Source of the DNA: Datnioides undecimradiatus
Taxonomy: Eukaryota; Chordata; Actinopteri; Lobotiformes; Datnioididae
Reading direction: 5' to 3'
Assembly (NCBI GenBank): GCA_008933995.1
Contig: WARS01002740.1
Span: 62,001 to 126,000 of the forward strand
Length of the DNA: 64,000 bases
The notes under the pieces were generated by a model. It saw only the letters and a program-made list of their open reading frames with translations, had not been told where the DNA came from and did not search any database. The stretch's first letter is position 1. Every line of letters begins with the position of its first letter. A program made the translations under genes and the position numbers. Below are positions 3,701 through 20,400 of this stretch, in pieces.

Positions 3701-4846
3701 CCCAGTAAAATGCAGCATTAACAGCTTCACACACACAAAAAACCTGCCGAAACATAAGTTGACTTCTATTGCATAGCAGTCACAGGAAATTTAATACAAG
3801 CACTGACCACTTCCTTCTATCAAAAATACCAACCACGACAACCAGTGTTTTCAGCATTTGTTGACAGTTGGTCATTTTAAAATATTGCTGGGAGTACTGG
3901 AACAAGGAGGAACAGCAACAGTGAGCTTGAAGAGCTGTAGCACATCTCCAATTTCTTGGTGAAATAACCAGCTTCTCCTTACTGTGCTCACACCATTCAG
4001 AAACGCATACTGTTGCAGAAAAAAATCTGATCACACTTTCTTGCTGTGCAAAATTTCCTCCCATTCAAGACTTCAAAATGGTGCAGCAGAACTCTCAATT
4101 GACAGTCCGACCCTGAGGGATGAATTCATGGTGTACAAAGTGCCAGAGAAAACAACCATCATGCCCTCCTGATGTGAGTTGTGCCCCACTGACTCTCTGA
4201 CACTGCAGGGTTTTCCAAAGCTAGGCCTGCTGTTTGGTCTCTGGGTCACATCGTGGGCTATTTCGCAACATTGAAGGTTCAGTTTGACCCAGATTTTGAT
4301 GTTTGCACTCTGCTGAAGCTTGAGATCTGTGGTGATGAAGCAAATGCTTATGATCATCCTGGATGCACCATTAAGTCTCAGGTGCATCTCTCTCCACTCT
4401 GCTCCACAGAGAATATGCGCTTGGTCTACTTTTGACAAAGGCCACCTCATTGTCACTGTACAGAGCAGATGAGCTGAGCAGAACATCAGTGCAGACTCCT
4501 GATCGTAAAGCATACACACTCCTCACATTGTAGATGCACAAGAGTCAAGGAAGAATGACCTATGCTACCAGGGGGTTTGAGGCCATGTGGAGCATTAAAT
4601 GAAACCATGTCACAGCCAGCCTTACTTTTTTTAGTTGATTGTAGATAATAGTCATCTGCTATCCTTCTTACTTTAGAGTCCTTAAGACAATTGTGATCCA
4701 ACAATATTTAGCTGGTGAGTCAGTCTGATAGGCAACATCCTTTGCTGCAGTTAACTATAGAAATGTTTGGAATTGCTGGGACCCTTTCAGTGGCGTCATG
4801 GTTAGCAGGAAAGACACCACCAATTTTGAACACTGTGAACCCCAAT
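719..4846. other. No recognisable gene; presumed upstream FHIT intron
   Basis: This is AT-rich sequence without splice-flanked coding similarity. It contains a poly-A run near 3352-3368 and a 148-codon open frame on the minus strand (4073-4519) that matches nothing I know. Assignment to FHIT intron is inference, from the next exon's phase and the absence of any other gene. Confidence 0.5.
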
Positions 4847-14386: not shown

Positions 14387-17382
14387 AGTGTGTTTTTTTC
14401 CTGAAAAACACAATACAAATTCAATTAATTAAGTTAAATTAGAAAAAAAATTAAAACTGAATTAGTTAATTTAATTCACTGGCTTTTATTTGTGATTTTG
14501 GTGGATGACACATATACACACATATATATAGAAATCCTGAATAAGTCACTCATCTCCTGTCCCACATCTCAAAGCATCTATAATCTGACCTTTTATGTTC
14601 ATCCTCCCAAATGAAAAGAAAAAGAAAAAGAAAAAAAACTCGGGGTGACAAATGTAAATCCGGCCATTCTGTCTTGTACCACTTCATGTAAAGAACATTC
14701 TTACCATGAGTCATTTCTGCAAGTTAATATGTTAGACCATTCAGTCCCGCAAATTGTGTGAAAGAATGTTGAGGTGGGGGACCCTTTAGTGTCTAGTATC
14801 CATCAGCTGAAGAGGGGACATTAGAGCCCAAACCCGCAGGAAGCTTCACCACTAAAAACACTAAAATGCATTTTTCTCTGTTTTTTGGATTCTTCCTCTG
14901 AAGGCTAGAAAGATTTTGTCTGGGAAGATTTTATATCTGTCAGTCTGACTTAAAGAGTGTTTTCATTGATTTACAAGTTAAGTCACTTGCTCCACAGAGT
15001 ATCAACCTAATGTTTTTAGCTAGTTTCTTTTCAACACAACACACCCATTCAAAAATACGCATGCACCATGTCATAGACCAAAACTCTTAAATGGTTTTAC
15101 TCATACGTACAGGACTAACAGAAATCTCAGCTGGAGTTGGAGGTGAATGGTTTTTGTGCATGTGAAAACAAAGCCACAAAACCTTCATCTTTTGTGCGTT
15201 AAGCACAAAACCTTTATTGTTCTTTCTCAGTGTATCAGCGTAACTGAAAATATCATAATAAGGGATTCAATATTTTTATAAAAGTTACTCATAAGTTTTT
15301 AATAGAAAAGGTAAGCCCAGTCTACTCTGTGATTTAAGATTGAGATTATTTTTTTTTAAACAAGCTGTAATTTTAGTTGTTCCATTTTGCTAGAAGAGCA
15401 AAATGCTTTAACAGATGTATCATGTTGGCCTTTTTCTCCCTCCACTCATAGGCACATAATACACACAAATCGGGAACATATAGCCATGGCTTTCCTGGAG
15501 ACCTTTGATATTTATTGTGTGTAGATGAATGTCCATGTCACTAGCTGTGTGTCATTTTCCAGGGTATGACTGGGTGATGGGGGCCATTTTAGGCCAGCTG
15601 TAATCAGGCAGAAAGAGCCAATTGTTGCAGCAGCAGTGATGGATCTCTTTGTTTTGGCCATCCAGGATTTGGAGCTGCCAACGGAAAGGGCATTTTGATT
15701 CATTTGAGGGCCTGCTATCTTCATCACAGCCTGTTATACTACAAGTGTGTGAGAGACACAGTCAGAAAGAGAAACAGAGAGAGAGGAAGTAAGAAAGAGA
15801 GTATATGTGTGAATTTGGGGGTTTGTCGTTCCCTTCAATCTTATTTATTGTAACAGACTCTCAAGACACAAGTATATGAAATATTTACCACAAAGTCACA
15901 CAGATGGTAAATATAATAACATCGTTCTTATTAGTCTGTGCAAGTCTGTGTCTGTGGAATAGCTTTCTTAAGAAAAATGAACACTTTAACACACATCAGT
16001 GTAATAAGAACCTCTGTGAATAACAGAAACCATCTTTGGAGAAGAAAATCTACAACTAACATGTCCTACTACCCAGGTCCCATTATTTAACATTGCTGTG
16101 GCACAGATCATGACCTGTTCTGCAGGGAGCAGTCTGAAGTATGGATGTTGTAGCTTCAAGTCTGGCAAGCCGTCATGTCAGCCATCTTATAATATCTGTA
16201 ATATATATGATTACGTATATCAGAACTGCAAAGTATCTCTTCATTGAAAGAAGAGCAAAGAATAGACATCTATGAGCAGACTTGTCTGGAGCAGAATCTT
16301 TGACCCACGAAACATAAACATTTCCTCTTATCCTAACAGCACACTCCTCAGTTAGCCATTGAGTTTTCCTTCAACTAAACCTACATTTCCATAAAGGTAT
16401 TTGGAAAGTTTTCCCAAATATTTTCACTGCCCATTGTCAGACACAGACCAGAATTATAACTGCAGTAAATACAGCAGTTGATGAGTACACTTGTGACATG
16501 TTGTAAGAATAATGTCCAACATTGTAGATTAGCTCCAGATTTTAATTTTTGAAGTTGAAAATTACAGCAACAAAATACTATAAATAAACTACATTTAGTG
16601 TAATTCTGGGTAATATCAAATTGGTGCTTTTGGGAATATCAGAAGACGTGTCTTCAGGGATGAGACATGACAGGGAAGACAGAAAATAAAATAGTAGATA
16701 AAATTAAAAGATAAAATTTTCATATAAAGCTTAGAAAACACTCAACCACAATTGTTGCTTTTTAAAAGACAGTCCACTATACACACTTCACACTGACAAC
16801 GACTATGTGTAGATTCTCAGGATTTCATTGTGAAGAGCTGATTATAAAAAACAATATCCCCTCTCACCCTGGCTCACATTTCAAAATGCCAATTGATATT
16901 ATTCCTCAGCCCCATTGCAGCTGTAACCAACACTATGACATTTGACCTTCAGCCTTTTGGTGGCATCACATTTTTATGTAAATGTGTAATTGTTAAAGTA
17001 GGTGGCATTACACTACACTTCTGATGTTACCAGTTCTCAGTTTGTATCAACTGTAGCACACCCTTTTATCTTCCTCCGCCCTTATTCACCTACTGAGTTT
17101 TCATGAATCATAATGATAAACAATGGATGAATCAAGGATTGTTGAAATAGTAGTGTCTGGTTTATGTCCCATAAACTAAAACCTTTAGTATGCTCTAATT
17201 CTCCAAATTTACACTGTATAATTAACTTATCGGTGCCAATTAAGCAGTTAAATAATTTATTGGATTTATTGTACTTGTACTGAAGGCACATTGCTAATGA
17301 CCCTCCTGCAGTTGTGTAAAGAGTTCAGAAACTCAGAAACAAAAATAACTAAATAATAAATAAACATTTTGGTGATATATAT
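14387..17382. other. No recognisable gene; presumed upstream FHIT intron
   Basis: AT-rich unique-looking sequence with a small AAAAAG repeat near 14611-14635. I see nothing that can be supported as coding, RNA or mobile. Confidence 0.5.
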
Positions 17383-17426
17383 CTGTCTCTTATACACATC
17401 TTAGGAAGACAAGCACTGACGACATG

Positions 17427-17428
<2 letters not shown>
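17383..17428. other. Probable sequencing-adapter sequence (Tn5 mosaic end plus stLFR-like linker)
   Basis: CTGTCTCTTATACACATCT at 17383-17401 is exactly the 19-bp Tn5 transposase mosaic end used in tagmentation libraries. It continues TAGGAAGACAAGCACTG and then ACGACATGAT up to 17428, which agrees with my memory of the MGI stLFR adapter. After that the sequence turns into (TA)16. I interpret this as adapter sequence retained in the assembly, probably at a badly resolved microsatellite, and not as fish DNA. Confidence 0.85.
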
Positions 17429-17472
<44 letters not shown>

Positions 17473-17488
17473 ATAATAATAATAATAA
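17429..17488. repeat. Compound microsatellite (TA)n(CA)n(AAT)n
   Basis: (TA)16 at 17429-17460, then (CA)6 at 17461-17472, then about five AAT units to 17488. It lies directly after the adapter-like sequence, so its length and left flank should be treated with caution. Confidence 0.9.
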
Positions 17489-20400
17489 CACTTACACTTG
17501 CAGGGTATAATACATACAAAGATCAATAACTTTTTTTCATTATTAAACATTTACATATATTTAATTTCATTTAACAGCATCTTTGGTGGGTATTAATACA
17601 ATTCAGATGTTAGGTTTGCACCACTAGCAAAATGCGAGCCAATTATTGCACATATCATAATACCAATGCTGATCATACACCTACATATCATATTGAGTTT
17701 CACAATCTAGCTGTTATGTATACATGCAAAGTAATTATTACATTACAGCCATTTTACAAGATTAGCATTAAGATACTTGAACATTATATTCTGACCTGGA
17801 ACAGGATTTTATCCTGCATGTGGCCATTAGAATGACTGTTTCATTTGGTTTTCCACTGGGAACAGCCTACAGAATCAAACTATATTAGAATTAGTATGTA
17901 ACGTGAAATTAGTGTGATACAGATGGGACAGAGAGGTGTACAAAGGTCACTAAGAGGGTTGAATACAAATGACAATGTGGAATTGGGAATCAGGATGGGA
18001 ATGGGTTGAGGTGTGTGGGTGTAAGGGTTACAGGGACAGATGTTTTCCCTCAAAGAAATGATTGCATTTGCAATGTAAAACCAATCTGCAACGCCTTGTT
18101 CTTATTACATGCACCACGACCCCGGGAGTGAATCAGACGAAAGCAGTCAAATAACTGTTGTGACAGATAATAATGGGATATGAGCAGATGGTTTTCTCAC
18201 TATATGGAAATGCTTGGGCTCTTCAATCTCATCCCTCAAACCCCATGACTGGAGCAGCCGGCCGGAGACAGAGGGGACAGGCTGTTCAGAGCTGAAGATG
18301 AGATTGGCCCAGGCAGAGACATATGGAAAGCTCTCCAGTCTCTCACCCACACGATAGTTGTGCGGCTGGAATCATCCTCCCCTGATACGCTAAAGACCCA
18401 TAACATTTGGGATCCTATGAAAAAAAGGATGTGCTGTGTGTATTGGCATACAGCAAAGGAACTAAGGGATTGGCACCTTGTAAAAAGTTTCTGTGTTTGT
18501 TGGGTTGGGGTGATGAATAGAATGTCAGACTTGTATATAGCCTGCTTTCCTGATTGGGTTTGGAGCTGCAGCCTGAGATGGCGAAAGCTTTACTGAGGCT
18601 CTATGGTCAGTGTCATCTAAATTTCTGTCATATTAAATAATTCTGCAGTAGCAATTTGTATTCAGTGCCATTGTTCTATGACAACACAGGCAGTGATGCT
18701 CATATAAGCTAAGTATAAAGTAATAGTTTCAAGTGCACAATGCTAGAGGGGCAACAAGATTTCATAATTGAACTATAACCTAGTGTATTTGTCATTGTCC
18801 TTCAAATGAACTATATGACTCGTGATTCATATGAGCATTCATTCATTCCTCACATTTGATGTTAGTTTGCTGAATTGCTGTCTATTTGCAAGTTTACACA
18901 CCAAGGTCCATCTCTTTGTCTATCTAGAGAAATTAGCCTCACTACCTACATATGCAAGACAGAAACAAAAGAAAGCTCGCCAGAGAGAGAGTGGTTAAGC
19001 ATAAAAGATGAAACTAAGCACAAACTAAAACTTTAAGGGGAACAACACCACAGTCTCGTTGTCAATAATTCCATCGTTACAACACTGCCATACTCACTCC
19101 TTTTGAAAGAGTACTGTTTAGTTAAACTGCTTAGTTTATTTTTTAACTGCTGCCAAACTACTGTCATTTAAACTCAACTCTTCCTGCAAATATCTTGAAT
19201 TATAAACCCCTACAAGATTTGGGAGGGATTACAGCCTTAAGGCTGCAAGAAGGCTTATGACATATCTGTGCAAAAGGTGATACTGGTATCTTAACAATTC
19301 CTTTTGACTGTGCTGTTTCTATTTACATGCTTTAATATTTTGGTAAGGGCAACCTATACTCTCTGTGCACAGATCACACAGGCCAAAAAGTAGTGGATTA
19401 CTTTATGAGGTTACTGCATTTGTTGAGAAACATTATTCATCCAGCAACAAAAAGTAAACAAGCTGTCTCTGTTCTCTCCAGCCTCAGCCTGCATCATCTT
19501 TCATGTGGGCAAGCTCCATCACCATGGAAGCACAGAGGAAAGAAAGATATCAGCTCTTGTGACATCTGATTTCATTCCAGTGCAGTTTACACACACAAAC
19601 ACACAGACACACAGAAAAAAAAGCAAACTGATCATTTGTGCCCCTGTTTGTGGCTCTTGAGATGAATGGCTCCCAGACGAGGCCACTGTGGCATGAAATG
19701 CTAAGATGTAATCATCTTCTCACAACAGGATGCTGCTTCACGAGAGAGGAATGAACTCCAATGTCTTTTTCAGTTTTTGTATCGTTCACTGCCTTGATAT
19801 TTTCTCTTCACTAAGCCAACATTTTTTTTACTATCTCTGATGTCTTTGATTTGTGAAAGACATCTCAGTATTTTAATTTTTTATTGTTCCAGAGGTTTTC
19901 TTGGATTGAAATTTTCCAACTTTAAAAATATAGTTTTCTAGTTTTCAAAGCGATAGTCCAACAGATTACACCACACTCTGGGCTAGTACTCAATTGCTTG
20001 TTTCACACATCAGTGTTGGTACAGATTAAACAATGTAATTAGGCTTTAGCAGTGGTAGTAGGTAGATTTTACTAGATTTGGACAGTGCCAGATTTGCAAT
20101 TTCCCTCTGTTTCCATTCTGATGCTAAGCTAAGTTTACCATCTTCCGGCTTAACCATATGTTTAACAATCAGACATGAGATTTGTATCAATATTTTTATG
20201 TAAATAACAAAAAACTAAAAAATGTTTTTGTACGATTTACTGGGAATAAAGGTGTTTTTTGCGTAGTACTTAAATTGTCAACATAACTTTTACACTTACA
20301 CACAAATGTTACTCACTGAAGCTCATAATCACTTGAGTATACGGAGATTTTGGAGTGTGTAGATGTATGTGGCAATACTTAACATATTATCCAACGATTT

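What the first reader, a model, noticed from the sequence alone, without database searches (positions are those of the whole stretch)
17383..17428. Tagmentation / stLFR adapter sequence embedded in the assembly
Seen: 17383-17401 is CTGTCTCTTATACACATCT, exactly the 19-bp Tn5 mosaic end. It is followed by TAGGAAGACAAGCACTG and ACGACATGAT. From memory this is the beginning of the MGI stLFR read adapter, giving 46 consecutive matching bases. Chance occurrence in a fish genome is negligible. It abuts (TA)16, where read-through or gap filling easily goes wrong.
Basis: partly seen in the sequence, partly recalled or inferred. Interest (0 to 1): 0.8.

Follow-up and report, generated by a model that had tools for sequence, protein, structure and literature searches.

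The report
Leftover stLFR sequencing adapter in assembly
A short stretch of this fish genome assembly is laboratory adapter DNA from library preparation, most likely pasted in during gap filling; it is one of dozens of such scars in this assembly and is not biology.

Summary
Window 17383-17427 is letter for letter the 45-nt stLFR forward adapter that a published pipeline filters out. Base 17428 (T) fits either adapter or the following (TA)n. The window lies in a 581 Mb assembly whose contigs C307 and C467 have exactly the longest-scaffold and N50 lengths published for the Mekong tiger perch, Datnioides undecimradiatus, built from stLFR reads with Supernova, GapCloser and TGSGapFiller. The Tn5 mosaic end occurs at least 84 times there (reversed control 0); 12 of 84 run on through a full 73-nt adapter. 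N runs lie within 300 bases downstream in 12 of 84 copies, upstream in 0 of 84. Simple repeats precede 48 of 81 loci, against 0.8% of random window positions. In three loci a non-simple flank is repeated after adapter plus Ns or fill, so the contigs really overlap. Eight loci carry adapter followed by about 340-860 bases copied from one other locus. It is an assembly artefact; the gap-fill step at this copy is inferred. No reads were available.

The parts
17383..17401 (+). Tn5 mosaic end (19 bp), first part of the stLFR transposon adapter
   Evidence: Exact, only hit in the window; 84 exact copies in the genome
17402..17427 (+). Continuation of the stLFR forward adapter (26 nt)
   Evidence: Exact match to the filter sequence printed in PMC10989976; 14 copies in the genome
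17428..17428 (+). T: adapter base 46 or first base of the repeat, not decidable
   Evidence: Matches the 73-nt adapter of other copies and also the TA repeat phase
17429..17460 (+). (TA)16 microsatellite, right side of the probable closed gap; the left flank ends ..GATATATAT at 17382

Best explanation
These 45-46 bases are stLFR library adapter, not fish DNA. In a short insert the read runs off the genomic end into the Tn5 mosaic end and the adapter behind it. Some such reads survived adapter filtering. The short-read assembly broke at a TA microsatellite, and the gap filler extended the left contig with reads whose tails were adapter, then joined the result to the right contig. Because the fill left no N, the later long-read gap filling had nothing to correct here. 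Shown: adapter identity, genome identity and published pipeline, 84 copies, outward direction where gaps remain, microsatellite bias, repeated flanks at overlapping contig ends, and copied fills. Inferred: that GapCloser rather than Supernova wrote this copy, that it used the stLFR reads, and that the true locus is an uninterrupted TA/CA microsatellite.
For: Exact 45-nt match to the printed adapter. 84 mosaic ends genome-wide, reversed control 0; 57 of 84 match 27 or more adapter bases and 12 of 84 all 73. N run within 300 bases downstream in 12 of 84 copies, upstream in 0 of 84. Simple repeat directly upstream in 48 of 81 loci against 169 of 20,000 random window positions. The other printed stLFR adapter occurs twice, one copy being all 45 printed bases running straight into Ns. 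Flank repeated on both sides of the inserted stretch: 46 bp in L018, 38 bp in L020, 32 bp in L062. One source locus copied behind the adapter in 8 places, another in 2. Longest-scaffold and N50 lengths identify an assembly made with stLFR, SOAPnuke, Supernova, GapCloser and TGSGapFiller. In a sister fish project GapCloser was fed stLFR reads (PMC9632004, passages).
Against: I found none against adapter origin. The paper reports that adapter reads were filtered, so some escaped. 72 of 84 copies have no N within 300 bases on either side. This copy has no N and no repeated flank beyond the TA repeat, so its gap-fill step is inferred from sister loci. 33 of 81 loci have no simple repeat directly upstream by my rule. 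12 of 84 copies match only the 19-base mosaic end before departing.
Confidence: 0.98

Rival explanations
1. The adapter was already in the Supernova contig (an assembly-graph error) rather than added by GapCloser.
For: One contig (C40) itself ends inside a tandem adapter (L019), and 9 of the 12 full-length adapters lie 0-16 bases from an N run.
Against: In 6 of the 8 shared-fill loci the copied sequence stops at a single N after about 340-395 bases, which looks like a gap filler running out of estimated gap length; that this is GapCloser behaviour is my recollection.
Confidence: 0.25
2. A natural Tn5/IS50-like element or a transgene inserted in the fish genome.
For: The mosaic end is derived from Tn5 ends (recalled).
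Against: The bases after it are the synthetic stLFR adapter. No second end lies in the 64 kb window even with 3 mismatches. Copies are cut at many lengths. Repeated flanks differ in length (46, 38, 32 bp), unlike a fixed 9-bp Tn5 target duplication (recalled). My genome-wide search for the natural outer end did not complete.
Confidence: 0.005
3. Chance match in fish DNA.
For: None found.
Against: About 1e-18 expected for 45 bases (my arithmetic); 84 copies of the 19-mer against 0 for the reversed control.
Confidence: 0.0001

Closest known systems
MGI/BGI stLFR forward adapter (Tn5 mosaic end plus further adapter)
   Same: 45 of 45 bases of the sequence used as filter in PMC10989976
   Different: Cut after base 45 or 46; 12 of 84 copies in this genome run to 73 bases
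Adapter contamination at contig ends in public assemblies (PMC11536531, passages read)
   Same: Adapters concentrated at contig ends and their reverse complements at contig beginnings, i.e. pointing out of contigs; adapters kept overlapping contigs apart
   Different: There Illumina adapters in microbial genomes; here the stLFR adapter in a fish genome, in 72 of 84 copies with no N within 300 bases, some followed by copied genomic sequence

Membership tests
stLFR adapter contamination | Exact adapter sequence | tested here: met
   45 of 45 bases
stLFR adapter contamination | Library type of the project is stLFR | tested here: met
   C307 and C467 lengths equal the published longest scaffold and N50 of the stLFR + Nanopore assembly of D. 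undecimradiatus
stLFR adapter contamination | Recurs across unrelated loci of the same assembly | tested here: met
   84 mosaic ends, 14 copies of the following 26-mer, 2 of the second adapter
stLFR adapter contamination | Points from contig towards gap | tested here: met
   Across the genome: N run within 300 bases downstream in 12 of 84, upstream in 0 of 84. Not testable at this copy, where no N remains
stLFR adapter contamination | Absent from independent reads of the locus | not testable with these tools
   No reads or second assembly held
Natural Tn5/IS50 insertion | Natural outer end, and a second end at the far side of the element | tested here: not met
   allows 3 mismatches, which covers the natural outer end as I recall it, and finds one exact mosaic end and no second end in 64 kb. 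The genome-wide search for the outer end did not complete; the inner end and transposase genes were not searched for
Natural Tn5/IS50 insertion | 9-bp target duplication (recalled) | tested here: inconclusive
   Both flanks here are TA repeat, so none can be told; sister loci show repeats of 46, 38 and 32 bp

The most novel reading that the evidence does not exclude
The adapter acts as a shared overlap hub for the gap filler: once an extension enters it, the program can leave along any adapter-bearing read, so unrelated gaps receive the same piece of genome. Here one locus (C478:6181136) was copied in pieces of about 340-860 bases behind the adapter into 8 others, giving false dispersed duplications that the published long-read gap filling did not remove.
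Probability: 0.85. Interest if true: 0.25.

Novelty: not a real feature. Interest (0 to 1): 0.12.

Why it matters
It is an error to mask, not biology. The practical point is wider: this assembly holds at least 84 mosaic ends, false fills that copy one locus into eight, and spurious insertions at microsatellites. These can mislead marker design, duplication counts and indel calls. Other assemblies made by the same stLFR, Supernova and GapCloser route deserve the same check; I could not test any.

Tried and rejected
Natural transposon, transgene and chance were considered and rejected (see rivals). Exact scans of the 45-mer in viral contigs and genome contigs gave 0 matches. A strict repeat score on 30 bases upstream found 30 of 84 copies repetitive, against 0.14% of 5,000 random window positions; a looser rule on the last 12-16 bases found 48 of 81 loci, taking the first copy of each locus. 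Its second control, from the same loci further away, counts N runs as mononucleotide repeats (191 of 4,050), so I rely on the window control. In one search shared stretches of 15 or more bases between the flanks appeared in 20 of 81 loci. Most are simple repeat. I count only L018, L020 and L062. I dropped L042 (22 bp at the junction, mostly TA) and L030 and L047 (27 and 35 bp, repeat-like). Searches for the 3' part of the adapter, for the ordinary MGI adapter and for the natural Tn5 outer end did not complete, so nothing is claimed from them. Paper searches (15 of 838 papers listed; 4 of 4; 10 of 14) listed no paper whose title or abstract start reports leftover adapter in this assembly; most were seen only as listings. 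PMC7751402 (passages) was not used.

Full report
Observation. The window reads ..GGTGATATATAT, then CTGTCTCTTATACACATCTTAGGAAGACAAGCACTGACGACATGAT at 17383-17428, then (TA)16 at 17429-17460 and a CA run. The 19-bp mosaic end is the only match in the window with up to 3 mismatches. No other exact stretch of 13 or more bases of the 73-nt adapter lies in the window (one of 12 at 3796), and the window has no N.

What it is. PMC10989976 (one passage read) prints the stLFR forward adapter used for filtering: 45 bases identical to 17383-17427. It also prints the second adapter. Base 17428 fits both the 73-nt adapter seen in other copies and the TA repeat. The 73-nt form is read from the loci, not from a paper.

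Which genome. The window is G000:C189:62001-126000 of a 581,297,614-base genome in 497 contigs. Contig C307 is 39,224,198 bp and C467 is 9,689,676 bp. PMC7235238 (passages read) gives exactly these numbers as the longest scaffold and scaffold N50 of its stLFR + Nanopore assembly of Datnioides undecimradiatus. The held copy has fewer sequences than the published 4,442 scaffolds and 595 Mb; I suppose that short scaffolds were left out. The paper's pipeline was an stLFR kit, SOAPnuke filtering, Supernova 2.0.1, GapCloser, then TGSGapFiller with MinION reads. The passages do not say which reads GapCloser used; in a sister project they were stLFR reads (PMC9632004, passages). Taxonomy: Lobotiformes, Datnioididae.

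How widespread. The mosaic end occurs 84 times (31 forward, 53 reverse; reversed control 0; the tool warns that counts of repeats are lower bounds). I fetched all 84 copies in 81 loci. Adapter match lengths run from 19 to 73 bases. 12 of 84 stop matching right after the 19 bases; at least two of these (L009 and L038) go on as adapter after one changed or missing base. 57 of 84 reach 27 or more, 12 of 84 are the full 73, and the window copy is the only one of 46. Three loci hold two whole mosaic ends in tandem, and contig C40 ends inside a tandem adapter (L019). The 26-mer after the mosaic end occurs 14 times. The second adapter occurs twice: once all 45 printed bases followed directly by Ns (L101), once 24 bases followed by other sequence (L102).

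How it got there. Direction: N runs lie within 300 bases downstream in 12 of 84 copies and upstream in 0 of 84, so where a gap remains the adapter points into it; the other 72 have no N that near. Place: a di-, tri- or tetranucleotide repeat ends at the adapter in 48 of 81 loci, against 169 of 20,000 random window positions, a figure that includes mononucleotide runs. Overlap: in L018, L020 and L062 the last 46, 38 and 32 genomic bases before the adapter are repeated exactly at the start of the sequence after the Ns, so the two contigs overlap and adapter plus Ns or fill was set between them. Copied fills: in 8 loci, 32 adapter bases are followed by the same genomic sequence. The sequence has 9 matches in all, and the only one without adapter is C478:6181136 (L100). 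For the 7 of these 8 loci compared over up to 1,530 bases, identity to L100 runs 338 to 864 bases, 5 of them ending at an N, a single one. The eighth (L082) was compared with another copy, L023, and ends at a single N after 366 bases. A second source, C315:11080127, was copied behind the adapter into 2 loci. Natural insertion does not account for this; a gap filler extending through adapter-tailed reads does.

This copy. It has no N and its flanks are TA repeat on both sides, so the individual gap-fill event is inferred from the sister loci. As it left no N, the later Nanopore gap filling would not have revisited it (inference).

Novelty. Adapter at contig ends is a known kind of error; PMC11536531 (passages) describes it in microbial genomes. 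Three further searches listed nothing on leftover adapter in this assembly by title or abstract start. Verdict: artefact, low interest, with a small practical lesson about copied fills.

Noticed in passing
L017, L023, L045, L049, L057, L062, L066, L082: About 340-860 bases of one genomic locus (C478:6181136, L100) are pasted behind adapter in 8 other places, as false duplications.
   Followed up: yes
L019 (contig C40, last 47 bases): A contig ends inside a tandem adapter copy (34-base unit); the same unit is tandem in L037 and L068.
   Followed up: partly
L101, L102: The second stLFR adapter is also in the assembly, once full length (45 nt) directly before an N run.
   Followed up: yes
G000, all 84 copies: The mosaic end is in 31 places forward and 53 reverse, a lean that I did not test or explain; it may reflect the order in which the gap filler extends contig ends.
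   Followed up: no
window 17349-17519, - strand: An open frame across the adapter contains MCIRDR, the translated mosaic end; such a peptide in predicted proteins would flag the same artefact.
   Followed up: no
L023 tail and its source L100: The copied fragment holds AAGTCGGAGGCCA, which resembles the start of the ordinary MGI adapter as I recall it; the search for that adapter did not complete.
   Followed up: no
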